This document shows, one piece after another, positions 6,863 to 34,286 of a stretch of DNA of 64,000 nt. The stretch comes from Paraburkholderia youngii (lineage in GTDB: Bacteria > Pseudomonadota > Gammaproteobacteria > Burkholderiales > Burkholderiaceae), in contig NZ_JAALDK010000003.1 of NCBI RefSeq assembly GCF_013366925.1, forward strand, positions 621,356 to 685,355, in the 5' to 3' direction. The translations under genes and the position numbers were made by a program. The notes below the pieces were generated by a model that was not told where the DNA came from, searched no databases, and was given only the letters and a program-made list of their open reading frames with translations. The first letter of the stretch is position 1. Each line of letters begins with the position of its first letter.

Positions 6863-7112
6863 TAGAGGTTCACATATGTTGGTCGTTGCCACTCGTCCCT
6901 AGTCCCTCACCACCTTTGTGCTGGCAGATTCCGCTTCTCCTCGCGGGTCGGCGTACCGAAAACTGTCGGCGGTTACATTGTCCCCAGAGCTTCATACCAC
7001 GCCGTTACCGGCGTCGCATGTCTGGGTAGGGAACGGTTGATGGAACAACCGGTTTAATCACGACGATCAGATCGTTGAGTTAGACAGAAATTCAAGCGAC
7101 TTTCAGGTCGCA

Positions 7113-7643
7113 CGTGCGCTTTCATCCCGAAGTACCATTGATTCCCTTTCTTCGTCTGATGCATCTCCGGATCCCGTTTGCCAGAGCCGTTCTTTGTCGA
7201 ACTTGGTGCGCTAATCAAGGTCGCATCGACCGCTGACCCTGCCTTCAACATCAAGCCTTTTTCACTCAGGATCTCATTGACCACCGTGAGCATCTGCGCG
7301 ACCAGTCCGTGCGTTTCGAGAAGGTGCGGAACCGAAGAATCGTGCTTTCGTCCGGCAAACGCGTCATACCTTCGTCCAGCCCCGCGAACTCACGGTACAG
7401 CGGCACGTCGTAAAGCGCCTCTTCCATCGCCGGGTCCGAAAGCCCAAACCACTGCTGCATGAAGTGAATCTGCAGCATCGTCGCAACCGGAAACGGCGAC
7501 CTTCCAGTCTTACCTTTCGGATAGTGCGGTTCGATCAGCGCAATCAACCTCGACCATGGCACAACGCGCCTCATCTCATCGAGGAATTCCCGCTTGCACG
7601 TGCGTTTCGTTGAAAGATCCAGGCCAAGACCGAGCTGTGTCAT
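7113..7643 (-). pseudogene. IS5-family transposase, N-terminal half, frameshifted and cut by intron
   Basis: Starts at ATG 7643 (MTQLGLGLDLSTKRTCKREF) and continues RRVVPWSRLIALIEPHYPKG and FPVATMLQIHFMQQWFGLSD, the conserved IS5 N-terminus. Around 7312-7318 one base is missing: reading TTC CTC GAA ACG in place of TTC TCG AAA CG restores [10 protein letters not shown] and the downstream frame [20 protein letters not shown], then [12 protein letters not shown]. The group II intron begins after GMKAH. The C-terminal half is absent from the window. The element also seems to have cut the VOC gene to its right. Confidence 0.85.
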
Positions 7644-8059
7644 CGAGGAACTCCTTTAGTTCGCGTTTTTCTAGGATAGGACAACCAGACTTCAACGCCA
7701 GGACTTTTGCAGACCTTCCCTAGCTGTCTATCGGCCGTCATCCGTGCAACCGGACCTTCAAGGATGTTGACGTTTTTTCCTTCGAGCAGGTCGAGCATTT
7801 CACTCACCGAGCCATTCCAGCGGAGGCATATGTCGGCCGCCCCTACAGTTGGGCGCTCGGCGACCAGATCGACCCCGTTGCCTTTTTGATGAATGCTCAG
7901 GACCGCGCCGCCGATTGCAAGTTGGCGCACGAGCACCCGGCCGCCTATGACATGCTCGGCGACGACTTCTGTCCCGAAAAGGTCATCGTAAAATGCACAG
8001 CTTCCCGCGAGGTCAGCTACGGTGATAGCAACATGATCGATTGCAAGGATTCGGGACAT
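7640..8059 (-). CDS. VOC-superfamily (glyoxalase/bleomycin-resistance fold) protein, probably 3'-truncated
   Basis: From ATG 8059: MSRILAIDHVAITVADLAGS, then CAFYDDLFGTEVVAEHV, a classic VOC opening with His9 as a probable metal ligand. A second beta-alpha-beta unit follows (GAADICLRWNGSVSEMLDLL). The family normally closes with a DPDGN-E motif, but here the tail is VCKSPGVEVWLSYPRKTRTK and the stop overlaps the IS5 start codon, so the IS5 insertion probably replaced the end. The substrate cannot be assigned. An upstream in-frame start at 8083 is possible. Confidence 0.7.
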   Translation of the reverse strand: MSRILAIDHVAITVADLAGSCAFYDDLFGTEVVAEHVIGGRVLVRQLAIGGAVLSIHQKGNGVDLVAERPTVGAADICLRWNGSVSEMLDLLEGKNVNILEGPVARMTADRQLGKVCKSPGVEVWLSYPRKTRTKGVPR

Positions 8060-8098
8060 ACGGACCTCCAAGAAAGGAACCATCCTATGCGCGAATAG

Positions 8099-8341
8099 TG
8101 AGCTGTGAATTAGAAGGCTACCATTTTGGCCAGCGTGATTCCGATTTGGAAAAGCTGCCGCTCATTATCTAGTTGCGACTGACCGAAGAGGGTCGTGTGC
8201 AGCCGACTGCTGGCGGGGTGGGTGTGGGCTCGGCGCCCGAATCCCATGAGTCAGGTGCCGGCCACAAGCTGACCGTCCGGTCGTCACACGCATACGCTCG
8301 GCGTCCTGAGACGGGACATGGGAGCATGTGTCCGCTAGCTG
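8099..8341. other. intergenic region, nothing recognised
   Basis: No convincing ORF or RNA gene is seen; open frames here have shadow-like composition. Confidence 0.5.
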
Positions 8342-8746
8342 TCATTGCCCCAACCTTGAGCGGATCTCGGCGACGGACAGATCATGTTTATGTGTGGCAA
8401 TTTGCCAGGTATTACCCCATTCATCTATCACCATGGCTCGCCGGTCGCCGTACGGCATGTCGGTTGGTTCCTCAATTGCGACCGCATTCGCCGCGATCGC
8501 GCGCCTGTAGGTTGAATCAGCGTCCTCGACATAGACGTAGAGAAATGCCGTGGCTGGGTCACGCAGGCCATCCCCACCGCTGACCATCAGCACGGAGTCG
8601 CCAATTCTGATCTCGGCAGGTAATCCGGCTCGAAATTCACCCCGTGCCTGAAAGACCTGCTTAAGGAACGCTACTAGGTTTTCGGGATCCCGTACGATGA
8701 TTCGGGGTGTGACGGTATGCCAGCCGTCAGGCTGGAAGTTAGTCAT
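8342..8746 (-). CDS. VOC-family protein, PhnB/glyoxalase-like
   Basis: From ATG 8746: MTNFQPDGWHTVTPRIIVRD, then PENLVAFLKQVFQARGEF, IRIGDSVLMVSGGDGLRD, FLYVYVEDADSTYRRAIAAN, EEPTDMPYGDRRAMVIDEWG and NTWQIATHK. This is the single-domain VOC layout of PhnB-like proteins (about 135 residues) with the 'P-YGDR-A-v-D-xGN-W-iAT' closing motif. The longer frame upstream (8824) adds residues unlike the family. It probably binds or converts a small metabolite; the substrate is unknown. It stands alone between mobile elements. Confidence 0.8.
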   Translation of the reverse strand: MTNFQPDGWHTVTPRIIVRDPENLVAFLKQVFQARGEFRAGLPAEIRIGDSVLMVSGGDGLRDPATAFLYVYVEDADSTYRRAIAANAVAIEEPTDMPYGDRRAMVIDEWGNTWQIATHKHDLSVAEIRSRLGQ

Positions 8747-8972
8747 AGCGTGCGCCTCGTAACAGATATCACCGAGAATTCTCCTTTGTGTGCCCCATGT
8801 CCGCAAAGGGGTCGCCTTCGGCACACGGCATCTGGCGCCAGCCGGCCATAAAAGCCACTAGAGAATGAAAGGGACTTCCCCGTCCCGAGGCTGCGGCGGA
8901 AGCCGCGAGTCGGCATCAATGTGCCAGGATGAAGTTGCGAACGTTCATCGACACCAGCGAGAGGGGAAGTCC

Positions 8973-9998
8973 ATGGCTATTATCACTGTCGGAATCGATC
9001 TTGCCAAGAATGTATTTGCCGTTCACGGTGTGGACGAGACCGGTAAGGCGATGCTGATCAAGCCGCGTGTTCCGCGCGATCAGCTGGCGACGTTGATCGC
9101 ACAGTTGCCTGCGTGCCTCATTGGCATGGAAGCGTGCTCCGGCGCGCATCACTGGGCCCGCATGTTCCAGCGGCACGGCCATACGGTCAAGCTCATGGCG
9201 CCCAATCTTGTCGCGCCTTATCGCATGTCGGGCAAGCGCGGCAAGAACGACGCGGCGGATGCTGCTGCAATCTGCGAAGCGGTGACGCGCCCGAGCATGC
9301 GTTTTGTGCCGCTGAAGGACGAACATCAGCAGGCAACGCTTTGCCTGCATCGGACACGACAAGGTTTCGTCGAAGAGAGGACAGCGACCTACAACCGGTT
9401 GCGAGGCCTGCTCTGGGAATTCGGCGTGGTGCTGCCACAGAGCCCGGACAAATTGCGCAGGTACATCACGGAACATCTGGACACATTGCCTGGCTGGGCA
9501 AAGCGCAGTATCAGCGATCTGCTTGAGCATGCCGGCCATATCGAGGATCGCCTGCTCGAATACGACCGTGCGATCGCTGAGATCGCGCGTGAGGACGCGC
9601 GTAGCAAGAGGCTGATGCAGTTGCGCGGCATCGGCCCAACCACGGCAAGTGCGCTGCTCGCCAGTATTGGTGCCGGGCACGACTTCAGAAACGGCCGACA
9701 GGTGGCAGCCTGGATCGGACTTACGCCCGGTCAATATAGCAGCGGCGGTAAGGCGCGGCTGGGCAGCATTACGAAAGCAGGTGACGCCTATCTGCGCGGC
9801 CTGCTGGTCAACGGTGCCCGCGCTGTCATTGCTAACCTCGGCGAGAAACAGGATCGCTTCAGCCGATGGGCCCGAACCCTAGTCGAGCGCCGGGGCTACT
9901 GGCGGGCAGCCATCGCGATAGCCGCAAAGAACGCGAGATTGGCGTGGGCTGTGCTGAAATATGGTGATGACTTCAAGCTCGAACCAGTGGCAGACTGA
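8973..9998 (+). CDS. IS1111-type transposase (DEDD)
   Basis: A 341-residue protein from ATG 8973 (GAGGGGAAGTCC upstream supplies a ribosome-binding site). The N-terminal RuvC-like DEDD domain shows VGIDLAKNVFAVHGVDE, IGMEACSGAHHWAR and RMSGKRGKNDAADAAAICEA. The C-terminal Transposase_20 domain shows LRGIGPTTASALLASIG and FRNGRQVAAWIGLTPGQYSS GGK with the catalytic-serine region. In this family an element-encoded guide RNA is now known to direct target choice (bridge RNA/seekRNA). The frame is intact. Confidence 0.93.
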   Translation: MAIITVGIDLAKNVFAVHGVDETGKAMLIKPRVPRDQLATLIAQLPACLIGMEACSGAHHWARMFQRHGHTVKLMAPNLVAPYRMSGKRGKNDAADAAAICEAVTRPSMRFVPLKDEHQQATLCLHRTRQGFVEERTATYNRLRGLLWEFGVVLPQSPDKLRRYITEHLDTLPGWAKRSISDLLEHAGHIEDRLLEYDRAIAEIAREDARSKRLMQLRGIGPTTASALLASIGAGHDFRNGRQVAAWIGLTPGQYSSGGKARLGSITKAGDAYLRGLLVNGARAVIANLGEKQDRFSRWARTLVERRGYWRAAIAIAAKNARLAWAVLKYGDDFKLEPVAD

Positions 9999-18185: not shown

Positions 18186-18474
18186 GTAAGCACCCGGGGA
18201 AGGCATCTTGACTGGGGCGATCGCTCAAACGATCAAACGATCAAGCAGCGGTCGGCGTCCAGCGATGAGGAAGCAGTTGCGCTATGTCGGCGGCACGGTG
18301 TGTCGGCAAGCGCGTCAACACGTCCTTCAGGTAAGCCAACGGATCGTGTCCGTTCAGTTGTGCAGAGCGGATCAATGTCATGATCGCGGCCGCGCGTTTT
18401 CCAGCACGCAGAGATCCTGCGAACAACCAGTTCGACCTCCCCAGGGCCCACGGCCGTATTTGATTCTCGACCCA
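18186..18474 (-). pseudogene. IS66 tnpC 3' remnant abutting the left RIT end
   Basis: The minus strand reads NWVENQIRPWALGRSNWLFA, then GSLRAGKRAAAIMTLIRSAQ and ends LLPHRWTPTAA at 18241, the C-terminus of an IS66 transposase. Its terminus GTAAGCACCCGGGG lies at 18186. It is cut precisely where the RIT terminal repeat begins (18475). 18033-18185, between this and the IS110, holds nothing recognisable. Confidence 0.85.
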
Positions 18475-18507
18475 GTTATGCCGACTCCCCGATTATGCCG
18501 CGTCATG
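18475..18507 (+). repeat. left terminal inverted repeat of the RIT element
   Basis: 33 bp, starts GTTATGCCGACT and ends CGCGTCATG. Its complement is at 23255-23287 with one mismatch. Confidence 0.93.
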
Positions 18508-18604
18508 CACCTGTATGACGGCGGGTATGGTCTTTCATGAATGCTGTGTCGGCATAAACGTATGATTTCTCAGGCTGGCTATCGCGCCGGCCAGGAGAGA
18601 TCAG

Positions 18605-19209
18605 ATGAATGCGAAACGCACAGTCAGTGAATCCGGCGGGCTGCCGGTCCATCACATCGATGCATTTCTTGATCGTCTGCGGACGGCACACTACTCCGAG
18701 GTATCGCTTCGCAAGAAACGAAGAGTCCTGTGTGCGTTCTCTGGGTGGATGGAGAACAGGGGCATCGACCTGATTGATCTTGATGAGTCTGTCACGGCTC
18801 GTTTTATGAAGCGCATGATCGGCGCATCACGAGACCGTGTCCAGCGTGCACGTCCCACATTACGGCAGTTTCTCGCCTATCTGCGCGCTGAAGCTATTGT
18901 GTGCCCGCCGACGTTGGGCCGCCAATCCGCGATCGCGCACATTTACGACCGATACGTGGACTATCTGAGGCAGGATCGTGGACTCGCGAGGAACTCTCTG
19001 CTCGTCTATGGCCCGTTCATTCGCGATTTTCTCGACAGCCACGCGGCCGGCGACGGAAGTTTATTGCCAGATGCATTTGACGCGGTAACGATCCGGAATC
19101 ATCTTCTTGCCCGCAGCAAAGGCCGATCGGCAGAGTACACGCGGCTGATGGCAGTTGCGCTTCGCTCGTTCTGCCATTTCCTCTTTCTGCGCGGCGATAC
19201 GGCACGAGA
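18605..19209 (+). pseudogene. RIT tyrosine recombinase A, N-terminal part (split by IS1111)
   Basis: MNAKRTVSESGGLPVHHIDA, with the SAM-like core-binding domain (LRTAHYSEVSLRKKRRVLCA; LARNSLLVYGPFIRDFLDSH; RSAEYTRLMAVALRSFCHF). The frame is cut after RGDTARD, where the IS1111 begins. Joining base 19209 to 20631 restores GAC CTG TAT GAG and a 410-residue protein, with no bases lost or duplicated. Confidence 0.9.
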
Positions 19210-19338
19210 TGGAATGGACACCGCCCTCCCTTCGGGGACGCAGGGTCCGGCAGAAACGCGGGGGCCCTCCAGAACCGGACGGCATCCATGTGCCAGAGTG
19301 GAGTTTCGACACGTCCACTTAAGGAACGGAGGGCCCAA

Positions 19339-20361
19339 ATGAATGCTACGACATACGGTCTGGATGTTGCGAAGCGGATTTTCCAGATGTACTGGGTCGA
19401 CTCGCAAACCGGCGAGATAGCCAATCGGCGCTTCCGACGCGACGAGCTCATCGCGTTTCTGGCGCGGCGGCCTGCTGGCCGTGTGGCGATTGAAGCATGC
19501 GGCAGTGCGCACTGGTGGGCTCGCAAGATCAAGGCACTCGGGCACGAGGTGGTGTTGTTGCATGCGAAGTTCATCCGACCGTTTGTGCAAACGAACAAGA
19601 CCGACGCGGCCGATGCGCGGGCGATCTGGACGGCAGTCCAGCAGCCCGGAATGCGAACGGTCGCGGCAAAGACAGAAGACCAGCAGGCCATGCTCGGTCT
19701 TCACCGTATGCGCTCACTGCTGATCAAGTTTCGCACCATGCAGGTGAACCAGTTGCGAGGCCTTCTCTATGAGTTCGGCGTGTCATTTCGAGCAGGACGC
19801 GCTGCTGGTCTCGCTGAGATCCGGGCACGCATGGCGGAACTCGAGGAGGTCCTGCCTGGATCGATAATCCGCGCCCTGCAGGACCAGTTGAGACGCATTG
19901 ATGGAATTGAGCAGGATATCAATCAGCTTGAGAAGCAAATAGGGGGCTGCCACAAGCAGGAAGCGGCATGTCGGGCAATTGCGGAAGTACCCGGTATTGG
20001 CAGGCTTACCGCCACTGCGCTGGTCGCTGCGATCGGAGATGCAAGAACGTTCAGGTCCGGGCGCGAGTTTGCCTCGTTCCTCGGGTTGGTGCCCCGGCAA
20101 TCCGGCACCGGCGGAAAGATCCGGTTGGGAGCGATCTCCCGCCGAGGTGATCCGTACCTGCGCACGCTATTGATCCACGGCGCACGCTCGGTGATGTGCC
20201 ACACGAAGGTGCCAACTCCATGGCAGAAGGCGATCCAGGACCGACGACCGGCAAATGTCGCGACCGTCGCCCTTGCCAACAAGATGGCACGCACCGCATG
20301 GGCCATTCTGGCCCACGGCAGCACGTATGAGAGGAATCACGTCAGCGTAAGACCCGCTTAG
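19339..20361 (+). CDS. IS1111-type transposase (DEDD)
   Basis: A 340-residue intact protein from ATG 19339 (ribosome-binding GGAACGGAGG upstream). It has YGLDVAKRIFQMYWVDSQTG, AIEACGSAHWWARKIKALGH, TNKTDAADARAIWTAVQQPG, and the C-terminal VPGIGRLTATALVAAIGDAR and REFASFLGLVPRQSGTGGKI. It is only distantly similar to the first IS1111 transposase (8973-9998) but has the same domain plan and the same 3' non-coding region. Confidence 0.93.
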   Translation: MNATTYGLDVAKRIFQMYWVDSQTGEIANRRFRRDELIAFLARRPAGRVAIEACGSAHWWARKIKALGHEVVLLHAKFIRPFVQTNKTDAADARAIWTAVQQPGMRTVAAKTEDQQAMLGLHRMRSLLIKFRTMQVNQLRGLLYEFGVSFRAGRAAGLAEIRARMAELEEVLPGSIIRALQDQLRRIDGIEQDINQLEKQIGGCHKQEAACRAIAEVPGIGRLTATALVAAIGDARTFRSGREFASFLGLVPRQSGTGGKIRLGAISRRGDPYLRTLLIHGARSVMCHTKVPTPWQKAIQDRRPANVATVALANKMARTAWAILAHGSTYERNHVSVRPA

Positions 20362-20611
20362 CAGGTGAGCAACGAAGGACGAGGCGAAGTACCGGTAGGT
20401 TGCTGAGGTTGATTAACATGTGATGGCGAAACAGGTCGGACCGCTGGAACATAAACCTGAACACAGGCTTGCGCTTCAAAGTGCGTGGCCGAGATGAGGA
20501 TGTTCCCGGCGAATTCCATCAGGGCCCGCGGGCTTCGGCTTGCACAGGCCGGATATAAGACCGCAGCCGATACCTCGCTTCAACATCACACGAAGGTCAA
20601 TCTGGCAAACC
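20362..20611 (+). ncRNA. putative IS1111 guide RNA (seekRNA) region
   Basis: 3' non-coding region of the second IS1111. It shares the block order GGTCGGACC, CCTGAACACA, CATCAGGGCCCG and CCGCAG with 9999-10310. See the paired finding. Confidence 0.55.
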
Positions 20612-20630
20612 GGGCGGTGTCCATATAAGA

Positions 20631-21258
20631 CCTGTATGAGTCAGTGCCTTCGGTTCGTAAATGGCGACAGTCAACTGTGCCAACGTTCCTCACGCCTGAG
20701 CAGCAAGAAGCTCTCATTGCATCGGCAGACCAGTCGACCACGACTGGGCTTCGTGACTACGCAATCCTGCTGTTGTTGGCGCGGCTTGGCTTACGTGCCG
20801 GAGAAATCGTCGCAATCGAGCTCGACGACATTCACTGGCGTTCGGGGGAACTCGTCGTTCATGGAAAGGGGCAGATGGTCGAGCACGTCCCGCTGCCATC
20901 GGAGGTCGGAGAAGCAATCGCAACATATCTCCGCGATGGTCGCGAAGCGAGTGCATCGCGGCGCGTCTTCCTTCGCAGATTGGCACCTCGGGTTGGTTTG
21001 GCGGGGCCGGGGGCGATTGGCAAGATTGTTGGTCAGGCCTTCGCACGTGCCGGTTTCCGCCCCGCGTGCCGTGGCGCCGCACATCTGTTCCGTCACGGTC
21101 TGGCGACGACGATGATTCGTCATGGGGCCTCGATGGCAGAAATAGCCGAGGTCTTGCGACACCGCTCACCGGACAGTACCGCGATCTATGCAACGGTGGC
21201 GTTTGAGGACCTGCGCGAGGTCGCGCGCTCGTGGCCCACGGCTGGAGGTTCAATATGA
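20631..21258 (+). pseudogene. RIT tyrosine recombinase A, C-terminal part
   Basis: The catalytic domain of the split recombinase: RDYAILLLLARLGLRAGEIV (first Arg), GKGQMVEHVPLPSEV, GAAHLFRHGLATTMIRHG (His-x-x-Arg) and LRHRSPDSTAIYAT (His and nucleophile Tyr). All residues of the R-H-R-H-Y set are present, so only the IS1111 makes the gene inactive. The stop TGA overlaps the next start (ATGA, 21255). Confidence 0.9.
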
Positions 21259-22202
21259 CTGCGATCCGCGATTCTCTCGCTCGGTACGTGGCGGTCCGCC
21301 GGGCTCTCGGGGCGTCATTCTACGAACCTGCATTGGCACTCGGCCATTTCGTTGATCTTCTCGAACATGAAGATGCTGAGTTCATTACTACCGATCTGGC
21401 TCTGCGCTGGGCAATGACGCCCACACTCGTCGAACGTGCCACCTGGGGGCGACGCCTCTCTCAAGTAAGAGGATTCGCCAGATGGATGAACCTCATTGAC
21501 GGTCGAAACCAGATTCCCCCCGCGGGGCTCCTGAGTGCCCGCAGACGGCGCAATGCCCCGCATATTTACACTGAGCACGAAATTGATCTGCTTATGGCCC
21601 GAGCCGCTCAACTGCGATCCCGAACCGGCTTGCGAGCACTGACCTATTCGACGCTCATTGGGCTTCTTGTGGCGACGGGTCTCAGGCCAGGCGAAGCGTT
21701 TCGGCTCGACCGGTCCGACGTTGACCTCGTCAGCGGAATACTCTCCATCCGGGAATCGAAGTTCGGCAAATCGCGCTGTGTTCCTGTAACAGAGTCGACC
21801 CGGTTGGCACTCGAACACTACGTCCAGAAACGCGATCAAATCTGTCCTTTACGGTTGAGCGAGGCGTTCCTGGTTAGTGAGCGCGGCAAGCGACTGAAGC
21901 CCGGCACTGCACGCAGCATGTTCGTCAGAATGTCGCGCGCTGTCGGTCTGCGACCGGCGACAGAGGATGGGCGCGATGGTTACGGTCCACGCCTCCAGGA
22001 CTTCCGGCATAGCTTCGCGACTGGACGGCTGGTCGAGTGGTATCGTGCCGGTCTCGACGTAAGTAGGGAATTGCCGAAACTTACCGCCTACCTCGGGCAT
22101 GTCAACGTCGGTCTTACGTACTGGTACATCGAAGCGGTTCCTGAATTGCTTGAACTTGCGGCAGCCTATCTCGACAAGAACTGTCCAGGAGAACAGTCGT
22201 GA
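21255..22202 (+). CDS. RIT tyrosine recombinase B
   Basis: A 315-residue intact protein. An N-terminal core-binding domain (ALGASFYEPALALGHFVDLL; WGRRLSQVRGFARWMNLID) is followed by a catalytic domain: LVATGLRPGEAFRLDRSDV, ESKFGKSRCVPV (Lys), LQDFRHSFATGRLVEW (His/Arg) and YLGHVNVGLTYWYIEA (His, Tyr). It is the second gene of the RIT trio, coupled on both sides by ATGA and GTGA overlaps. The three proteins are thought to act together in RIT movement. Confidence 0.92.
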   Translation: MTAIRDSLARYVAVRRALGASFYEPALALGHFVDLLEHEDAEFITTDLALRWAMTPTLVERATWGRRLSQVRGFARWMNLIDGRNQIPPAGLLSARRRRNAPHIYTEHEIDLLMARAAQLRSRTGLRALTYSTLIGLLVATGLRPGEAFRLDRSDVDLVSGILSIRESKFGKSRCVPVTESTRLALEHYVQKRDQICPLRLSEAFLVSERGKRLKPGTARSMFVRMSRAVGLRPATEDGRDGYGPRLQDFRHSFATGRLVEWYRAGLDVSRELPKLTAYLGHVNVGLTYWYIEAVPELLELAAAYLDKNCPGEQS

Positions 22203-23194
22203 GCGCCGCCGATCTTCCATCACTCGTTCAGCGCTTCTTTACCCAGCGCCTGCTCGAGCAGCAAGGTCTAAGTTCGCATACGGTGGCAAGTTACCGTGAT
22301 ACGTTCCGGCTGCTGCTAGCGTTTGCCACGAACCATATCGGACGCGCGCCGTCAAAGCTGCGCATCGAGGACTTCGATGTGTCGTTGATCGAGGAATTCC
22401 TGCGGCACCTCGAACACAGCAGAGGGAATTCGGTGCGGACACGCAACACGCGGCTTGCTGCCGTGCATGCCTTCTTCCGGTTCGTCGCGGTCAGCGAGCC
22501 TGCGCTGTTTCTGCAGTGTCAGCGCGTTCTTGCAATTCCATCTAAACGCTGCGAGCACGGCCCTGTTGAGTTTCTGACAGAGAGCGAGGCCGCCGCTCTG
22601 GTAGGGGCGCCTGACGTACGAACGTGGACCGGCACCCGAGACCGAGCGCTGCTTCTTGTAGCGGTTCAAACGGGTCTGCGCAACAGCGAATTGACCACTC
22701 TCCGGCGCCAGGATGTGATGCTCGGTACAGGCGCCCACGTCCGTTGCCTCGGCAAAGGCAGAAAGACGAGATGCACTCCTCTGCGACCGGATGTTGTTGC
22801 AGTCCTGAAGCAGTGGCTGCTGTATCAACCAGGCGAACCAGGCGATCCGGTCTTCCCCAGTTCGCGCGGTGGTCATCTCAGTGCCGATGCTCTTCAGCAA
22901 CTCGTGTCGCGTAACGCCGAAATCGCGCGCCTCTCGTGCCCCTCGCTGAAGAAGAAATCAATAACGCCTCATACGCTTCGGCACACGGCCGCGATGAGCC
23001 TGATGCATCACGGCGTCGACCTGACCGTGATCGCGCTCTGGCTCGGTCACGAGTCCTCCGAGACTACTCAGATCTATTTGCACGCCGACATGCCACTCAA
23101 GGAACGCGCGCTCGCGCACGCGACGGCGAGTGGTGTTGCACCGACACGCTACAAACCTCCAGATCCGTTGCTCGCCTTCCTGGAGGCTCTCTGA
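22199..23194 (+). CDS. RIT tyrosine recombinase C
   Basis: A 331-residue intact protein with GTG start overlapping the previous stop. The core-binding domain reads LLEQQGLSSHTVASYRDTFR and RNTRLAAVHAFFRF. The catalytic domain shows VAVQTGLRNSELTTLRRQDV, CLGKGRKTRCTPL, TPHTLRHTAAMSLMHHG and WLGHESSETTQIYLHADM. The complete R-K-H-R-H-Y set is visible. It ends 60 bp before the right terminal repeat. Confidence 0.93.
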   Translation: MSAADLPSLVQRFFTQRLLEQQGLSSHTVASYRDTFRLLLAFATNHIGRAPSKLRIEDFDVSLIEEFLRHLEHSRGNSVRTRNTRLAAVHAFFRFVAVSEPALFLQCQRVLAIPSKRCEHGPVEFLTESEAAALVGAPDVRTWTGTRDRALLLVAVQTGLRNSELTTLRRQDVMLGTGAHVRCLGKGRKTRCTPLRPDVVAVLKQWLLYQPGEPGDPVFPSSRGGHLSADALQQLVSRNAEIARLSCPSLKKKSITPHTLRHTAAMSLMHHGVDLTVIALWLGHESSETTQIYLHADMPLKERALAHATASGVAPTRYKPPDPLLAFLEAL

Positions 23195-23254
23195 TAATGC
23201 CGACAACCGGAGCGACCGGGAATAGAGATCCGCCAACCGTTGTGTCCGTGGATT

Positions 23255-23287
23255 CATGACGCGGCATAATCGGGAAGTCGGCATAAC
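23255..23287 (+). repeat. right terminal inverted repeat of the RIT element
   Basis: 33 bp, starts CATGACGCGG and ends GGCATAAC, the complement of 18475-18507 apart from one base. Confidence 0.93.
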
Positions 23288-23599
23288 GACTGTGAGAATT
23301 CGATCCGCCCGTTTGTAATTGGGCGCCGCGGCTGGCTGTTCTCGGACACGGTTGATGGCGCGACTGCGAGCGCCAATCTTTACTCTCTGGTCGAAACCTG
23401 CAAAGCCTGTCGAATCGATCCGTACCGCTACCTCCACTGGCTGTTCAGGCACATCCCTCTGGCGACCAGTGTCGACGACTACGACGCGCTTCTGCCCTGG
23501 AAAATGCCTGCTTCCCTGCGCTGAGCACACGCCACGCCGCTCTGCGATTCAGGGCCTCCAACTCCACTCGCAGAGGGACGTCGATAATGGATCGCTTAC
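23288..23599 (+). pseudogene. IS66 tnpC 3' remnant abutting the right RIT end
   Basis: The plus strand reads in frame DCENSIRPFVIGRRGWLFSD, TVDGATASANLYSLVETCKA, LFRHIPLATSVDDY and ends at TGA 23522-23524. It is the C-terminus of an IS66 transposase from a different subgroup than the left remnant and in the opposite orientation. CGCTTAC at 23593-23599 is the IS66 end. Confidence 0.85.
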
Positions 23600-23968
23600 T
23601 GCCAACCCACAAGGCCAGCGATATCTCAACATTGCTGCCTCATCGCTGGCAGCCGGCGGATCCTATCCGCTAGTTCAATTCGTCAAGACGGGTTTGCCGG
23701 CCGCTTACAATTTTGGGAGCTTACCTGTTCTGCAATCGAAGACTGTCCGGTTGCGGGACCCGCGGCACCTGCGGTACCATCCCTTGTCAGCCCGCAACCG
23801 CTCGGCCTCAGTGATCGCGGATTCTCCAAGTCTGCCAGCTGCGCGGCGGCTTCCTCCGAGAAGGCCCCTGAGAGTTTTACCACGTCGCCAACTCACTGGT
23901 GTTCAAAGCGTGGGCCTGCTCCACATCCCAGATCATGGCCGCCGCTCCCAATCGATGCCCGAACAAGG
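23600..23968. other. 369-bp stretch downstream of the NRPS, nothing recognised
   Basis: No supported gene. Minus-strand frames (23683-23896) have no family features. No clear terminator for the NRPS operon was found. Confidence 0.4.
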
Positions 23969-26900
23969 TTAGCTCGGCGGCACCTGCGATTGCCGCCGAC
24001 GGTCTGGTGAATTGTTCAAGGCTATCAAAAGGCATCGAGCCAGAACTCGGCGGTTTTCTGGGGTGTTCATCATCGTCGTGTGGTCACCCGGAACGGACAC
24101 GGCGTGAATGGCTTCAGCACGCAAAACCCTGTCCCACCCCCGCAACGGCGAACTTGCTTCCTGACCTATTGAACCTCGTGCACGACGGCTGCGGACAGGT
24201 CCGTTGACATAAAACTGGTTGATCTCGATTCCAAGAGATGGAGCTTCATACAAGTCCAGTGCCCTTTGGAACTGCGCGGCCTTTTCATACGTCAGAAGAA
24301 GGCTTTCTAGATCACGGTCCTGGGGTATCGCCCCAATTTGCTGTGCCTTTTGAATCAGTTGGCCAATCGAGCTGTTTGCAGCAAATCGTTCTAAGACCTG
24401 GAAGCTGTCATCTTCCAAGAATTCCATAGAATCCAGCAGCACTTCCCGTGCCATTTGGGTCGGCGATAAGCTTCGTCGATTTGCAGGTAACGCAGCATCC
24501 ATGAAGGCCATGAATGACACAGCTTCATTCAGATTCACTAAGTGCTGCGCAATCGCGTAAGCCAAGATTGCCCCTGATGAGTATCCAGCAAAGCGATACG
24601 GTCCATGTGGCTGGATCTCTCTAACTGCTAGCATTACTTCCGCCGCTATTGCCTCAAGAGTTAGTGGACGTTCGTCGTCGAAATGCGGCCATGGCAAAGC
24701 ATAGACCGGACAGTCGACGTCCATTTCCTTCACAAGGGCGGGGACATAGGAACAATCGCCCAATCCTGTGGGAACAAAGAAGAGAGGTGGCTGTGATCCC
24801 GTTTCCAGAACGGAAATCACTTGCGGACTGCTGGGCTGTCGCTTCAAATGAATCTTCGATGCGAGCTCCCTCAGAACAGGGGCTTGGAAGAGGTCGGCAG
24901 CGCTAAACGTCAGCCCTGCTTTTTGTGCTCGACTGATCAGCTGCACCGCCAAGAGCGAGTGCCCGCCGAGCGCAAAGAAGTGGTCGTGGCGTCCGACCCG
25001 CTCCACACCGAGAAGCTCGGCCCAGATCTGTGCCAGCGTGATCTCGACCTCGCCTTGCGGCGCCTCATAGGCGCGATGCGCATACGCCTCATCGTCCGGC
25101 GCCGGCAGCGCCTTGCGATCGAGCTTGCCATTCACCGTCAGCGGCAGCGCCGCCAGCCGCACAAACGCCGCCGGCACCATGTAGTCCGGCAGGTGCGCAC
25201 TTATCTGGGCGCGCAAGGCGCCGGCAAGTTCGCTTCCATCCAGCCCGTTCGAAGCTGCTTCAGGCGCACATACCACATAGGCCACCAGTCGCTTCTCGCC
25301 GGCACCGTCCTGCTGCGCCACCACCACCGCATCGCGCACCCAGGCATGCTCGATGAGCCGCGCCGCAATCTCCCCCGGCTCGATGCGGAAGCCGCGGATC
25401 TTCACCTGGTCATCGTTGCGGCCCAAAAACTCAAGATTGCCGTCCGGCAGATACCGCGCCAGATCGCCAGTGCGGTACAGCCGGTCGCCCTCGACAAAGG
25501 GACTGCCGATGAACCGCTCCGCGGTCAGCTCGGGCCGGTTCAGATAACCGCGCGCCACCCCCGCCCCGCCGACGTAGAGCTCCCCGACCGCGCCAAACGG
25601 AACCGGCGCACCGTGTCCGTCAAGCAGATACACCCGCGTGTTCGCAATCGGATGGCCGATCGGGACAATGGCGCCATCAAACTCATCCGGACAACTCCAC
25701 GCTGTCACGTCGATCGCAGCTTCGGTCGGACCGTACAGATTGTGCAGGCCTGTCCAAGGCAAGAGGCGCCGAACCTTATGCACACTGGCGGCAGGAAGCG
25801 CCTCGCCGCTGCATAAAACACGCCGCAGCGACGTGCAGCGGTCAACACTCTTCGCATCCATAAAACTGACCAGCATGGATGGCACGAAGTGAACCGTCGT
25901 GATGCGCTGGCTAACGATCAAGTCAACCAATGCAGCGGGATCTCTGTGCGCATCCGGAGGCGCCAGCACCAGGGTCGCCCCTTCAAGCAACGTCCAGAAG
26001 AACTCCCAGGCCGAGACATCGAAGCCAAATGGCGTCTTCTGCAACACGACATCAGTTGCCTTGAGACCATAGGCGTTTTGCATCCAGATCAGGCGATTAA
26101 CGATAGCCCGATGCTCATTCTGTGCCCCCTTGGGGGTGCCGGTGGATCCGGAGGTGTAGATCACATAGGCGAGATGGCGCGAGGTCAGGCCGAGCGCACG
26201 CGGGTCCGGATCGGAGACCGGCAGGTTCGCCCACTCCGGCGTCGCCGTCTCTAGATCGACCACCGTCAGATCGAGCAGCGCATCGGCCCCCAGCGCCGAT
26301 CGGCCCGCCGCATCGGCCAGCAGCAGCGGCGGCGCCGCATCCTCGAGCACCTGGTGCAACCGCGCCGACGGATAGACCGGATCCAGCGGCAGATAGGCGC
26401 CACCCGCCTTGAGGATCGCCAACAGCCCGACCACCATCGCCACGCTGCGCGCAACGCAGATCGCCACCGGCTGGTCCGGCGTCACCCCAAGCCCGATCAG
26501 ATGATGCGCCAGCTGGTTGGCCCGCGCATTGAGCTCGCCATAGCTTACGCGCTGGTCCTGATAGACCACCGCCACCGCATCCGGCGCCTGGCGCACCTGG
26601 GCCTCAAACAGCTCATGGATGCACTGCTGCTCAGGATACGTCACCGCCGTCCGGTTCAGCTCCTCCAGCAGATACGTGCGCTCGTCGGCCGCCAGCAGCT
26701 CAATCCGCCCGACCGCTTGCCGCGCATCGGCAGCCATCGCCTGCAGCAGCGCCAGCAGATAGCCTCGTTGCCGCTCGATGGTCGCCTGATCAAACAGCGC
26801 CGTGGCATAACCCAACGTTCCGGCGATCTCCTCACCATGCTCGCCAAGGTTCAGCTCCAGATCGAACTTGACCTGATCGAAGCCGTCTGCCGCCGCCTCC

Positions 26901-29900
26901 ACACGCAGCCCAGGAAGGTCGAACGTCCCAGCGGCGTTGTTCTGCCAGGCCAGCATCACCTGGAACAGCGGCGTGTGATCAAGACGCCGGGGCGGCTGCA
27001 CGATCTCCACCACCTGCTCAAACGGCAGGTCCTGATGCTCCTGCGCTCCCAAGGCCGAGCGCCGCGTCCGCGTCAACAGCTCCGCCACGCTCGGCTCGCC
27101 CGACAGGTCAAGCCGCAGCGCCAGGGTGTTGACGAAGCAGCCGATCAGCTCTTCAACCTCGCGGCGACTGCGATTGGCGCTCGGCACGCCGATCACTAGG
27201 TCGTCCTGCCCTGACAGACGCGACAGCAGCGCCGCCCAGGCCGCCAGCACCGTCATGAACAAGGTCGTGTCATGCTGCCGGCTCAGCCGCTTCAGATCCC
27301 GCGTCAGATCCGCATCGATCACGACCGTCACACTGGCCCCGGCAAACGACTGCTCTGCCGGCCGAGGCCGATCTGTCGGCAAGGCCAGACGGGCCGGTGC
27401 GCCAGATAGATTGTTGCGCCAATAGTGCGCCTGGCTCTGCAGCCGCTCGCCCGACAGCCACTGCCGTTGCCAGGCGGCATAGTCCGGATACTGGATTGCA
27501 AGCGGCGGCAGCGGATCGCCTTCACCGGCCACGAAGGCCCGGTACAGCTGACTGAGTTCACGCACCAACACGCCCAGCGACCAGCCATCCGAGACAATGT
27601 GGTGCTGCGTTAGCAGCAAGACGTGCTCCTCATCCGAGATCCGGATCAGCCGGCCGCGGATCAGCGGGCCACGCGCCAGATCGAACGGCGTGCGCGCCTC
27701 TTCCCTGCACAGACCCAATAGCGCCTCGTCCGCATCCGGCCTGTCCCGCACATCGTGCTCCACAACCGGCAGCCCCGCATCCTCCGGCAGCAGCTCCACC
27801 CAGGGCTTGCCCTCCGGCGCGACAAACACGCTGCGCAGCGCCTCATGACGCGCCAACACACGGTCAAGGCTGCGCTGCCAGGCGCTGCGGTCGAGCCCGC
27901 CCTTGAGCCGCCACCCGAGCGGAATGTGATAGTTCGTACTGCTCTGATCCAGCTGCGCCAAAAACCACAGCCGCTGCTGCGCAAACGACAGCACAAGCGG
28001 CGCTTCACGCGATACCGCCACAATGGCTGGCAGGTCTTGCGCGCCGGAGCGGCTCAACTCATCCATGATACTCGCGGCCAGATCGGCCAGCACCGGTTTG
28101 GCAAACAGCGTGGTCAGCGGCAGTGTGAAGCCAATGGCCAGCGAGACCCGGCTCAACAGCTGCACCGCCAAGAGCGAGTGCCCGCCGAGCGCAAAGAAGT
28201 GGTCGTGGCGTCCGACCCGCTCCACACCGAGAAGCTCGGCCCAGATCTGTGCCAGCGTGATCTCGACCTCGCCTTGCGGCGCCTCATAGGCGCGATGCGC
28301 ATACGCCTCATCGTCCGGCGCCGGCAGCGCCTTGCGATCGAGCTTGCCATTCACCGTCAGCGGCAGCGCCGCCAGCCGCACAAACGCCGCCGGCACCATG
28401 TAGTCCGGCAGGTGCGCACTTATCTGGGCGCGCAAGGCGCCGGCAAGTTCGCTTCCATCCAGCCCGTTCGAAGCTGCTTCAGGCGCACATACCACATAGG
28501 CCACCAGCCGCTTCTCGCCGGCACCGTCCTGCTGCGCCACCACCACCGCATCGCGCACCCAGGCATGCTCGATGAGCCGCGCCGCAATCTCCCCCGGCTC
28601 GATGCGGAAGCCGCGGATCTTCACCTGGTCATCGTTGCGGCCCAAAAACTCAAGATTGCCGTCCGGCAGATACCGCGCCAGATCGCCAGTGCGGTACAGC
28701 CGGTCGCCCTCGACAAAGGGACTGCCGATGAACCGCTCCGCGGTCAGCTCGGGCCGGTTCAGATAACCGCGCGCCACCCCCGCCCCGCCGACGTAGAGCT
28801 CCCCGACCGCGCCAAACGGAACCGGCGCACCGTGTCCGTCAAGCAGATACACCCGCGTGTTCGCAATCGGATGGCCGATCGGGACAATGGCGCCATCAAA
28901 CTCATCCGGACAACTCCACGCTGTCACGTCGATCGCAGCTTCGGTCGGACCGTACAGATTGTGCAGGCCTGTCCAAGGCAAGAGGCGCCGAACCTTATGC
29001 ACACTGGCGGCAGGAAGCGCCTCGCCGCTGCATAAAACACGCCGCAGCGACGTGCAGCGGTCAACACTCTTCGCATCCATAAAACTGACCAGCATGGATG
29101 GCACGAAGTGAGCCGTCGTGATGCGCTGGCTAACGATCAAGTCAACCAATGCAGCGGGATCTCTGTGCGCATCCGGAGGCGCCAGCACCAGGGTCGCCCC
29201 TTCAAGCAACGTCCAGAAGAACTCCCAGGCCGAGACATCGAAGCCAAATGGCGTCTTCTGCAACACGACATCAGTTGCCTTGAGACCATAGGCGTTTTGC
29301 ATCCAGATCAGGCGATTAACGATAGCCCGATGCTCATTCTGTGCCCCCTTGGGGGTGCCGGTGGATCCGGAGGTGTAGATCACATAGGCGAGATGGCGCG
29401 AGGTCAGGCCGAGCGCACGCGGGTCCGGATCGGAGACCGGCAGGTTCGCCCACTCCGGCGTCGCCGTCTCTAGATCGACCACCGTCAGATCGAGCAGCGC
29501 ATCGGCCCCCAGCGCCGATCGGCCCGCCGCATCGGCCAGCAGCAGCGGCGGCGCCGCATCCTCGAGCACCTGGTGCAGCCGCGCCGACGGATAGGCCGGA
29601 TCCAGCGGCAGATACGCGCCCCCCGCCTTGAGGATCGCCAACAGCCCGACCACCATCGCCACGCTGCGCGCAACGCAGATCGCCACCGGCTGGTCCGGCG
29701 TCACCCCGAGCCCGATCAGATGATGCGCCAGCTGGTTGGCCCGCGCATTGAGCTCGCCATAGCTTACGCGCTGGTCCTGATAGACCACCGCCACCGCATC
29801 CGGCGCCTGGCGCACCTGGGCCTCAAACAGCTCATGGATGCACTGCTGCTCAGGATACGTCACCGCCGTCCGGTTCAGCTCCTCCAGCAGATACGCCCGC

Positions 29901-32900
29901 TCGTCAGGTGGCAGGATGTCCAGCTCCCGCACCGGCGTGTTCGGCGCCCGCTCCAGCGCCTCCGCCAGCTGCGCGAGCGTGTGCTGCATGTAGCCGCAGA
30001 CCCGATCCGCTGAGACGCCCTCCGCCACCTGCGCCGTCAGCCCGAGCGCCTCGCCAAAATCCTCCACCGACAGGGTCAGCGGATAGTTGGTGCGCTCCTC
30101 CCCGCCCAGCCATTCCATGCCGGGCAGCACATCATCGGCTGCAGAGGCGGAGACCGCCGCCGGCGTATTGTGGCGGTAGTTCAACAGCGCGCTGAACAGT
30201 GGCGCCGGCGCCGCAACGCCGCTGCAGCGTTGCGCCAGCGCCAGCGAGGCATGCTCATGTACGAGCAGCTCGGCCAGCCGCGCGTGGGTGGTCCGCACGC
30301 TCGCCTCGACCCCGGTCCCGTCCAGGTCAAGCCGCAGCGGCAGCGTGTTGATGAACAGACCCATCGCGCGGTCGCCACCCGCCCCGCCATGCATGCGGCC
30401 GAACAGCACCGTGCCGAACACCACCTGCTCGCGGTCGCTGCTGCGCGCCACCACCTGGCCCCAGGCCAGATGGCACAGGCTCGCCAGGCTCACCCCCAGC
30501 CGCCGCGCCTGCACCCGCAGCCGCACGCTGAGCGCCTGCGGCAGCATCCGCTGCGCCTCACGGGTCCCGCGGCCGTCGCCCTGGACCTCGCACAAGCCAA
30601 AGGGCGTGCACGGCTCATCGATGTTCCCCAGCAGTCCCCGGAAGAACTCTTCATGCGCGTCTGCACCCACGCCAAGCCGTGCCGCCGCCACCAGGTTGCG
30701 GAACGGCTGCGGGGCTGCCAGCTCATGCTCGCGTCCCTCCAGCACGGCCCGGACCTCGGCATGCATCAGCTCCAGCGTGGTGTGATCCCCGATCAGATGA
30801 TGCTGCAGCTCCAGCAGCAGCCAGCGCGCGCTGCCGGGCTCGCGCGCAATCACAAACCGCAACAAGGGCGCCCGGCCAAGCTCGATGCGGTGCTGGCGCG
30901 GATCAAACCGATGCTTCAGCTGCGCGTCGCCCGGACCACAAGCCCCGTCCAGCTCGACCTCGCTCACCTCCAGCAGCGTGTTCCGCCACACCACCTGGGC
31001 CGGGCGCGACAGCCCTTCCCAGACAAACGACGTCCGCAGGATATCGTGCCGATCCACCACCCGCTGAACCGCGGCAAGATAGCGCTCGAGCAGGTCACGG
31101 TCCGCAAACGCCATCTGCGAGACCAGCAGGTACGGATCGCCCTTTGTCGCCAACAGATGATGGAACAGGATGCCGTCCTGCAGTGGCGACAAGCCATAAA
31201 TGTCCTGGATGTTGCCGACGCCCCCGGGCACTGTGGCGACGATCCGGTCGATCTCGCCCTGCGTCAGCTCAATCAGCGGCAGCATCTCTGGCGTGATCGC
31301 CGGACTCTGTTCGCCGATCAGGTTGGCCGGGACCGCCATCTCGTGATGGCTACTGAGGCTTGCAGCCAGGTCCGCCAGCACCGGCTTGACGAACAAGGTG
31401 CGCACCTCGATGCGCAGTGACCGCCGCCGCAGCCGCTCCATCAGTTGCACCGCCAAGAGCGAGTGCCCGCCGAGCGCAAAGAAGTGGTCGTGGCGTCCGA
31501 CCCGCTCCACACCGAGAAGCTCGGCCCAGATCTGTGCCAGCGTGATCTCGACCTCGCCTTGCGGCGCCTCATAGGCGCGATGCGCATACGCCTCATCGTC
31601 CGGCGCCGGCAGCGCCTTGCGATCGAGCTTGCCATTCACCGTCAGCGGCAGCGCCGCCAGCCGCACAAACGCCGCCGGCACCATGTAGTCCGGCAGGTGC
31701 GCACTTATCTGGGCGCGCAAGGCGCCGGCAAGTTCGCTTCCATCCAGCCCGTTCGAAGCTGCTTCAGGCGCACATACCACATAGGCCACCAGCCGCTTCT
31801 CGCCGGCACCGTCCTGCTGCGCCACCACCACCGCATCGCGCACCCAGGCATGCTCGATGAGCCGCGCCGCAATCTCCCCCGGCTCGATGCGGAAGCCGCG
31901 GATCTTCACCTGGTCATCGTTGCGGCCCAAAAACTCAAGATTGCCGTCCGGCAGATACCGCGCCAGATCGCCAGTGCGGTACAGCCGGTCGCCCTCGACA
32001 AAGGGACTGCCGATGAACCGCTCCGCGGTCAGCTCGGGCCGGTTCAGATAACCGCGCGCCACCCCCGCCCCGCCGACGTAGAGCTCCCCGACCGCGCCAA
32101 ACGGAACCGGCGCACCGTGTCCGTCAAGCAGATACACCCGCGTGTTCGCAATCGGACGGCCGATGGGGAGTCGTCGGACTGTCTGATCAATGGCGGTGAT
32201 CTCGCAGACCGTCGCAAAGGTCGACGTCTCAGTTGAACCGTAGCAGTGCAAGAGATGTTGCGGTCGGCTTTGGCTCAAAACCCGGGCCACCGCCGCCGCA
32301 TCAACCGCGCCACCACCAACTAGTAGAAATCGCAAACTCGTCAGCACCGGGCCTAACTCATCAACGCTCCGGCTGAACAACCCGGCAGTCAAATGCAGCA
32401 CGGTGATGCGGTGCCGCCGAACCAGAATGCGCAGCACCTCGGGCTGCAGTACAGCTGTGTGTGGAATCACAATTAGGCTGGAACCGTGCAGCAGTGGTGC
32501 CCAAACTTCCAGCGTACTGATGCTAAAGGCGGGATTGCCTACCCAGGCCACGCGATCACTCGAGGTGAACTCCGCATAGCCGTTGTTGATGACGAGACGG
32601 TTGACAGCACGATGAGGAACAACCACGGCCTTCGGAAGGCCGGTCGACCCGGAGGTGTACATCACGTAGGCCGGAGCCTCGGCGGTCAATGCTAGGCCAG
32701 GATCGGTACTACACCCTGTTCCAGCCATGATCGGATCAATGGCCAGAATAGGAATCGGAATCTCAAGCCCGCCCTCATTCTCGTCACCTACAAGGATGAG
32801 GCGCACAGCACAGTCGGTCATAATCCAGCTTCGTCGCCCAACTGGACCGCCCCGATCAATCGGTACATAGACCCCGCCCGCCTTCAGAACTGCCAGTTGT

Positions 32901-33955: not shown

Positions 33956-34286
33956 GCCGGAATTCCTCGCCAGTGGCCGCGCATCCACTGGCCGACCATC
34001 TTAGCCGTCGAACCAAGCATCAACATCCTCGTACCTGTCGCCACATGCCAATTGCCGGGTGATTTTAAGGAGAGAGAGCCCGCCGATAAGTCCGAGCGGT
34101 TAGACGACACCTCCAAGCACCTGATTGCGACAACAGCCTTCACACATAGAACGATTGGAATGATACGACCTAAAGTCCAGGCGGTCGTTGTCCCCGAGAG
34201 ATCTGGCGCGGGTCGATCCCATCGCAGTGCAGGCCGCCACATCCGGACGTCGACGTTCGGGAAACTCGCGTCGGCGTATCTAGCGC
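33956..34286. other. 331-bp gap between NRPS and formyltransferase-like gene
   Basis: No ORF in the operon direction. It contains GCGCGGCCACTGG-type short palindromic sequence at 33970-33992 and the NRPS ribosome-binding site (GAGGAA at about 33963-33968). It could hold an internal promoter; none was identified. Confidence 0.4.

What the first reader, a model, noticed from the sequence alone, without database searches (positions are those of the whole stretch)
18475..23287. RIT element whose two ends each abut an IS66 transposase cut at the same codon
Left of the 33-bp repeat the minus strand reads NWVENQIRPW; right of it the plus strand reads DCENSIRPF. These are the same conserved position of two different IS66 TnpC proteins, in opposite orientation. 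Chance is unlikely. It suggests that the RIT recombinases recognise the conserved (V/C)EN-IRP coding sequence of IS66, and that this copy arose by recombination between two occupied or targeted IS66 elements.
Basis: partly seen in the sequence, partly recalled or inferred. Interest (0 to 1): 0.75.

Follow-up and report, generated by a model that had tools for sequence, protein, structure and literature searches.

The report
RIT element targeting IS66 transposase codons
A small mobile element built of three recombinase genes sits, at both ends, exactly at one conserved codon of another mobile element's transposase gene; relatives elsewhere do the same, which reveals where such elements insert, and this copy seems to mark a place where two occupied targets recombined.

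Summary
Both flanks of the RIT element (18476-23286) are C-terminal halves of two different IS66 tnpC genes, opened at the same codon (both start at PF03050 position 259). Relatives show that this is the RIT's target: 10 of 10 readable RIT ends in this genome, and 25 of 27 in a family survey, abut IS66 tnpC at D-N-N^x-x-E-N. A normal insertion has the C-half at one end; the N-half lies at the other, behind a short palindrome ('cap', ATGCCG-CTAG-CGGCAT) with two mirror-image sites. The cap is on the N-half side in 21 of 21 cases, for either RIT orientation. The window copy is abnormal: C-half/RIT/C-half, no cap. Its complement, N-half/cap/N-half without RIT, lies 375 kb away with the matching IS66 types, and this RIT is a sharp mosaic of two RIT lineages (switch at 22,810/22,811). 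Best reading: two IS66::RIT insertions recombined inside ritC; the other junction later lost its RIT. More distant RITs use other transposase/recombinase codons. The 8-bp flanks of the split IS66 do not match, so the history is not closed.

The parts
18186..18477 (-). C-terminal part of IS66 tnpC, type E (...N|WVENQIRPW...), from the crossover codon AAC (18475-18477) to the IS end at 18186
   Evidence: 99.7% to positions 2162-2453 of the intact IS66 at C3:26527-28979; PF03050 from position 259 and PF13817
18178..18185 (.). 8-bp flank outside the IS66-E end (TTCGCGCC); does not match the flank of the N-half after C3:266036 (TCTCAAAG)
18476..18507 (+). left terminal inverted repeat of the RIT
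18605..19209 (+). ritA, 5' part (interrupted)
   Evidence: ORF from 18605; aligned to uninterrupted copy L021
19210..20627 (+). 1418-bp insertion inside ritA carrying a transposase-like ORF 19288-20361 (IS110-like by my reading, not tested)
20628..21258 (+). ritA, 3' part
21255..22202 (+). ritB, tyrosine recombinase (PF00589)
22199..23194 (+). ritC, tyrosine recombinase (PF00589)
22810..22811 (.). recombination breakpoint: sibling-lineage RIT to the left, P. graminis-like RIT lineage to the right
   Evidence: 263 of 264 informative sites from 18510 to 22810 are sibling type, 32 of 35 from 22811 on are graminis type
23255..23286 (-). right terminal inverted repeat of the RIT
23285..23599 (+). 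C-terminal part of IS66 tnpC, type B (...N|DCENSIRPF...), crossover codon AAC 23285-23287, stop 23522-23524, IS end 23599
23599..23670 (+). remnant of another IS66 (type A) tnpC C-terminus next to the IS66-B end
   Evidence: tblastn, 95.8%

Best explanation
RIT elements of this subfamily insert site-specifically into IS66 tnpC at the last Asn codon of D-N-N (shown by comparison). The inferred circular form has a palindromic attachment region, CGGCAT-AACnnnnnTC-ATGCCG-CTAG-CGGCAT-GAn'n'n'n'n'GTT-ATGCCG, with two mirror-image crossover sites of 10-bp spacer; either can be used, so the RIT enters in either orientation, leaves the cap on the N-half side, and carries spacer letters from earlier targets (anatomy shown, reaction inferred). 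The window copy is not a simple insertion. Two such insertions, one in an IS66-E and one in an IS66-B gene, recombined inside ritC at about 22,810, giving C(E)-RIT-C(B) here and N(B)-cap-RIT-cap-N(E) at C3:264 kb; the second RIT then excised by the normal reaction, leaving N(B)-cap-N(E). The orientation of the four halves fits the joining of two DNA circles, or insertion of a circular segment, at this point (inferred).
For: Same-codon flanks. Cap between a RIT end and an IS66 N-half in 21 of 21 unique caps with a RIT end and an assigned other side; RIT end ritA in 6, ritC in 12, undetermined in 3. Eight different cap spacers (TGGGT, CCCTG, GACTG, GTCAT, CCGTG, CCTTG, CCGGT, TGGCT) also occur as the first bases after the Asn codon of IS66 C-halves seen. 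Complement: one N-cap-N at C3:264308-264325 with types B and E; in the own-genome search the E type has two intact copies, one N-half and one C-half, cut at the same place (element positions 2162-2164) (40 of 107 candidates scored). Mosaic: 99.9% to siblings up to about 22,810, then 93% to siblings and 98.6% to the P. graminis RIT; 4 differences in the first 2920 alignment columns against 34 in the last 489, Fisher p = 3e-25; sharp switch.
Against: The 8-bp sequences outside the two IS66-E halves differ (TTCGCGCC and TCTCAAAG), although an intact copy has a perfect 8-bp repeat, so they may not be one original copy, or one flank changed later. A second B-type C-half at C3:409 kb (95% identical) could be the partner of the N(B) half. 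A RIT with two caps was not seen. C3 gave one clear plasmid ParA and both its ends lie in or near IS66 sequence, so fusion of two replicons is not shown. At the outermost left end two of three informative sites, and one site at 21256, are not sibling type. No cap was found in the two other genomes that have C-RIT-C.
Confidence: 0.75

Rival explanations
1. One-step site-specific exchange: the RIT-proximal crossover site of the cap in one IS66::RIT recombined directly with an unoccupied IS66-B target, giving C-RIT-C and N-cap-N in a single event, with no homologous recombination.
For: Predicts the pair found; the N-cap-N turned up in a search made on this prediction. The solo cap spacer GACTG equals the B-type target letters.
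Against: Does not explain why the window RIT is a sharp mosaic of two RIT lineages; a later gene conversion would be needed.
Confidence: 0.2
2. Inversion model: the N-cap-N at 264 kb is the reciprocal of the RIT with a B-type C-half at 409 kb, by inversion of the 145 kb between, and the window copy comes from a separate event.
For: The 409-kb C-half is on the minus strand and of type B.
Against: It leaves the only E-type C-half found (window) without the only E-type N-half found; what once lay at the other end of the 409-kb RIT was not determined.
Confidence: 0.1
3. The RIT inserted between two IS66 fragments already lying head to head, and the coincidence of position is accidental.
For: IS66 copies and fragments are common on this contig.
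Against: Nearly all other RIT ends of the subfamily are at the same codon; the complementary N-halves are joined by the RIT's own cap.
Confidence: 0.02

Closest known systems
RIT (recombinase in trio) elements
   Same: Three adjacent overlapping tyrosine recombinase genes, about 3.4 kb, terminal inverted repeats of about 33 bp; one copy in Cupriavidus metallidurans CH34 was reported to inactivate an IS66 tnpA gene (passage of PMC2864759); an inverted repeat and overlapping palindrome were noted (passages of PMC3414803).
   Different: In the papers I could read, target specificity, empty site and mode of movement are listed as not tested (PMC10214605, discussion section). The codon-level IS66 target, the two-site cap, the spacer carry-over and the C-RIT-C / N-cap-N pair are not in the passages I saw. 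Ricker et al. 2013 and Van Houdt et al. 2009 were not read, so I cannot say what they contain.
Tn554, SE and GInt elements
   Same: Site-specific elements with several tyrosine recombinases; in SEs and Tn554 about 6 bp of donor flank are carried to the new site (PMC10214605), as the spacer letters seem to be here.
   Different: No palindromic two-site junction is described in the section read; RIT has no fourth protein as in SE/GInt.
Tn916-type coupling sequences (recalled, no call)
   Same: Short non-homologous spacer exchanged between donor and target.
   Different: Targets are AT-rich, not a codon of a transposase; no mirror-image double site.

Membership tests
RIT element | three adjacent, overlapping tyrosine recombinase genes in one orientation | tested here: met
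   ritB 21255-22202 and ritC 22199-23194 overlap and match PF00589; ritA precedes but is interrupted at 19210-20627; uninterrupted trios are annotated in plasmid relatives
RIT element | terminal inverted repeats of about 33 bp | tested here: met
   32 bases at 18476 and their complement at 23255 with one mismatch
RIT element | mobility | tested here: inconclusive
   three near-identical sibling copies in different IS66 genes of one genome imply movement; no experiment
IS66 family (flanks) | TnpC with DDE_Tnp_IS66 domain and IS66 C-terminal element | tested here: met
   PF03050 and PF13817 on both flanks
IS66 family (flanks) | 8-bp target duplication (recalled for IS66; seen for the intact E copy) | tested here: not met
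   TGTCCTGC on both sides of the intact E copy; the split E copy has two different 8-mers
Tn554/SE-like transposition | donor flank letters carried to the new site | tested here: inconclusive
   spacers in the cap differ from the spacer at the C-half in several two-ended copies, e.g. L023, L236, L237; the reaction itself was not tested

The most novel reading that the evidence does not exclude
RIT elements are a general class of site-specific parasites of other mobile elements: each subfamily has settled on a different, highly conserved codon stretch of transposase or recombinase genes (IS66 DNN^xxEN; IS66 after GR; tyrosine recombinase LRH^H; IS21 IstA at PDNL; ISAzo13-type at SVD), uses a palindromic two-site junction that lets it enter in either orientation, and by recombination between occupied sites joins and rearranges megaplasmids.
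Probability: 0.6. Interest if true: 0.8.

Novelty: new variant of a known kind. Interest (0 to 1): 0.72.

Why it matters
RIT elements were described in 2009, yet a 2023 comparison lists their target specificity, empty site and mode of movement as not tested (PMC10214605). The anatomy found here makes all three directly testable: a defined target codon, a defined crossover spacer, a predicted palindromic junction and a predicted empty site. It also suggests how RITs take part in rearranging IS-rich replicons, and gives a diagnostic pair of scars (C-RIT-C and N-cap-N).

Tried and rejected
Replicon fusion by mapping: I mapped the whole contig C3 on two P. sabiae plasmids (G095 C3 and C4); they are not colinear with C3, and the DNA next to both joints has matches on the larger plasmid, so this test said nothing. 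The PF13614 search gave on C3 one clear plasmid ParA (233.9 kb) and a NifH-like hit, so two replication systems are not shown.

Target duplication test for the split IS66-E: negative.

Reciprocal N-cap-N in G931 and G1197: no cap at up to 2 mismatches. Both are in many contigs (about 120 and 160). G931's C-RIT-C lies on a 3.6-kb contig whose right flank turns into another IS66 fragment after 36 bases, so I count it only as possible.

Limits of the counts. The family survey scored only 2 candidates per genome, so it under-samples copies; ends at contig edges (L239, L242, L244 both ends, L243 one end) were unreadable; L253 has no end. In L234 and L251 one end is not IS66. L260 has a shortened cap before the N-half and is counted as IS66. 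In a separate genus pattern search (10 of 97 genomes, own included) the 13 non-own ends read are: 8 C-half (one, L051, badly decayed), 4 cap (one, L054, without a recognised N-half) and one IS91-like (L047, P. sabiae, where an IS91-like sequence lies between cap and RIT). Of the 32 stretches of the genome contigs cap scan, 12 are unrelated and were dropped (7 of them one Pseudomonas sequence) and one (L191) is unclear; rows identical in sequence were dropped before the count of 21; L112 (RIT end, other side not recognised) and L192, L199, L207 (no RIT end) are outside it. My end pattern did not recognise the ends of the C. necator pHG1 and C. oxalaticus copies as fetched; they are not in the plasmid count. 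The class-level RitC search matched 8 of 369 genomes. The order-level cap search gave 2 of 399 genomes, one of them the own and the other unrelated.

Literature: my six library searches found few RIT papers. Ricker 2013 and Van Houdt 2009 were not looked up; a third RIT paper was looked up and is not held. The statement that the target rule is not in print is limited to these searches.
Full report
Observation. The RIT element spans 18476-23286 and both its flanks are C-terminal halves of IS66 tnpC in opposite, outward orientation. Both peptides begin at position 259 of PF03050 and contain PF13817, so the two genes are opened at the same codon. They are different IS66 types: the left half is 99.7% identical to positions 2162-2453 of an intact element at C3:26527-28979 (type E), the right half belongs to a type (B) whose nearest intact relative on the contig is at C3:516 kb. 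The window lies at C3:621356-685355 of a four-contig genome of 9.49 Mb; for two stretches beside the joints the best plasmid matches are from Paraburkholderia sabiae.

Sibling copies. The genome holds three further RITs with ritC 99% identical and one at 89%. Their flanks, read outward, are again IS66 tnpC at the same codon. Three siblings are normal insertions: one end runs into the C-half, the other into AACTGGGTTC-ATGCCG-CTAG-CGGCAT-GAACCCAGTT and then the N-half. The N-half carries this palindrome ('cap') whether it lies next to the ritA end (L022, L023) or the ritC end (L021). All 10 readable own ends are at IS66 (window 2, L021 2, L022 2, L023 2, L024 1, L042 1).

Other genomes. A search with the whole RIT DNA matched 21 of 398 genomes of the family, own included, with only 2 candidates scored per genome. 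Of 27 non-own ends with readable flank, 25 abut IS66 tnpC at the site (one of them, L260, behind a shortened cap; one, L235, for 36 bases only) and two do not (one end each in L234 and L251). In four closed plasmids (Caballeronia sp. SBC2, P. graminis, C. zhejiangensis, C. grimmiae) 8 of 8 ends are at the site, each copy with one C-half and one cap plus N-half. A genus pattern search gave 10 of 97 genomes, own included, with the RIT end (its ends are told in Tried and rejected).

The cap. A scan of the genome-contig collection for the 18-bp cap core gave 32 stretches; 12 are unrelated. Together with the other loci there are 21 unique caps that have a RIT end on one side and an assigned other side; in 21 of 21 the other side is an IS66 N-half (3 own, 18 others), with a ritA end in 6, a ritC end in 12 and undetermined in 3; among those examined none lies between a RIT and a C-half. 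The spacers in the arms vary. Eight of them (TGGGT, CCCTG, GACTG, GTCAT, CCGTG, CCTTG, CCGGT, TGGCT) also occur directly after the Asn codon in IS66 C-halves seen here; others (such as GTGCT, CAGGC, CAAGC, GCGGT) would read as a codon plus two bases at that place. The two arms are the same in many caps and differ in others. This fits a circular junction with two mirror-image 6-10-6 sites, of which either may be used, with exchange of the spacer. An example that fits: in P. terricola, L185 has N-arm CCGTG next to a ritA end and L208 has RIT-arm CCGTG next to a ritC end, as expected if the second site was used next; L202 of the same strain is not in that series. That the circle exists is inferred.

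The abnormal copy. The window copy has two C-halves and no cap. If two IS66 sites exchanged partners, two N-halves joined by a cap should exist. A search of the own genome for the palindrome, up to 3 mismatches, gave three caps next to siblings and one alone, at C3:264308-264325; it is flanked by two inward-facing N-halves, of type B and type E. In the own-genome search with the E element (40 of 107 candidates scored) there are two intact copies, one N-half (C3:264332-266036, with an internal deletion) and one C-half (the window's); the halves end at element positions 2164 and 2162. The B-type N-half was the only one found (40 of 109 candidates scored), but there are two B-type C-halves on C3, in the window and at 409 kb, 95% identical. 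Among copies with both ends seen, 12 are normal (3 own; G1109, G1136, G1112, G110, G1149, the last two with interrupted RITs; 4 plasmids), one more has two C-halves clearly (G1197, L240) and one possibly (G931, L235, short contig).

Mosaic. Compared with sibling L022, the window RIT (apart from its inserted IS) has 4 differences in the first 2920 alignment columns and 34 in the last 489 (Fisher p = 3e-25). The last part is 98.6% identical to the P. graminis RIT, which is 90-92% identical over the two long segments before it. Of 302 informative sites, 263 of 264 from 18510 to 22810 are sibling type and 32 of 35 from 22811 onward are graminis type; at the extreme left end two of three sites are graminis type. 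So a crossover took place within ritC between RITs of two lineages. With the left lineage in IS66-E and the right one in IS66-B this gives C(E)-RIT-C(B), and the other product N(B)-cap-RIT-cap-N(E) becomes N(B)-cap-N(E) when its RIT leaves by the normal reaction. The order of the four halves on C3 fits joining of two circles or insertion of a circular segment. I rate this above a one-step site-specific exchange because it explains the mosaic directly.

Against. The 8-bp flanks of the two E halves differ. Replicon fusion is not shown: C3 gave one clear plasmid ParA, its ends do not overlap, and the P. sabiae plasmids are not colinear with it. No cap was found in the two other C-RIT-C genomes.

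Other subfamilies. RITs with RitC 39-61% identical have other targets. In genome G785 (five copies, 61%), two flanks are tyrosine recombinase genes (PF00589) both ending at profile position 134, reading ...DLRHH (L230, L231); a third copy (L229) has a cap of the same build, ATGCCG-CGCG-CGGCAT, followed by HHFAISTVVRW..., which I read as the other half of such a gene. L227 and L228 abut a frame reading PDNL... with PF22483 downstream (the name IS21 IstA is recalled). L225 ends a PF07592 (ISAzo13-type) transposase at VISVD. A 47% RIT on contig C4 lies between two IS66 fragments both cut after ...GR or one codon later, in opposite orientation. That these stretches carry catalytic residues is recalled knowledge, not tested. 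These are few copies each, so one target per subfamily is a hypothesis.

Literature. PMC2864759 (passage) reports one RIT inactivating an IS66 tnpA in C. metallidurans; PMC3414803 (passages) reports an inverted repeat and overlapping palindrome and an insertion of another RIT in a transposase gene; PMC10214605 (passages; discussion section) lists RIT target specificity, empty site and movement as not tested. PMC5385486 was searched by terms only and showed a reference. Ricker 2013 and Van Houdt 2009 were not read.

Noticed in passing
L024, about 6397-9836 (C4 of the same genome): A RIT with 47% identical RitC lies between two different IS66 tnpC fragments in opposite orientation, both cut near ...IRPxxxGR: again two same-side halves, at a second IS66 site.
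   Followed up: partly
L222, L229-L232 (genome G785): Five copies of a 61% RIT subfamily; flanks of L230 and L231 are tyrosine recombinase genes by Pfam, those of L222, L229 and L232 read as LRHH or CRHH stretches by eye; L229 shows a cap with centre CGCG.
   Followed up: partly
L226, after RitC: RIT end with half-site TATACATA followed by a palindrome TTATGTATAGCTATACATAA, the same build as the cap with other letters.
   Followed up: no
window 19210-20627: 1418-bp insertion with a transposase-like ORF inside ritA; the sibling copy L021 lacks it.
   Followed up: partly
window 23969-33988: Open frame of 3339 codons on the minus strand, in a stretch similar to non-ribosomal peptide synthetase genes on rhizobial plasmids.
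   Followed up: no
C3:409555 (L042): RIT whose left end abuts a second B-type IS66 C-half; its other end was not found.
   Followed up: partly
NZ_CP125297.1 15.45-18.10 kb; L192, L199: An IS91-like sequence (by my reading) lies inside the cap arm; in P. sabiae it separates cap and RIT.
   Followed up: partly
NC_005241.1:137742-139190 and NZ_CP084287.1:378394-380097: Annotated IS66 transposase genes run through the cap, so interrupted tnpC genes are recorded as if whole.
   Followed up: no
C3:769.2 kb: NifH-like P-loop ATPase hit, suggesting that this contig is a symbiosis plasmid.
   Followed up: no
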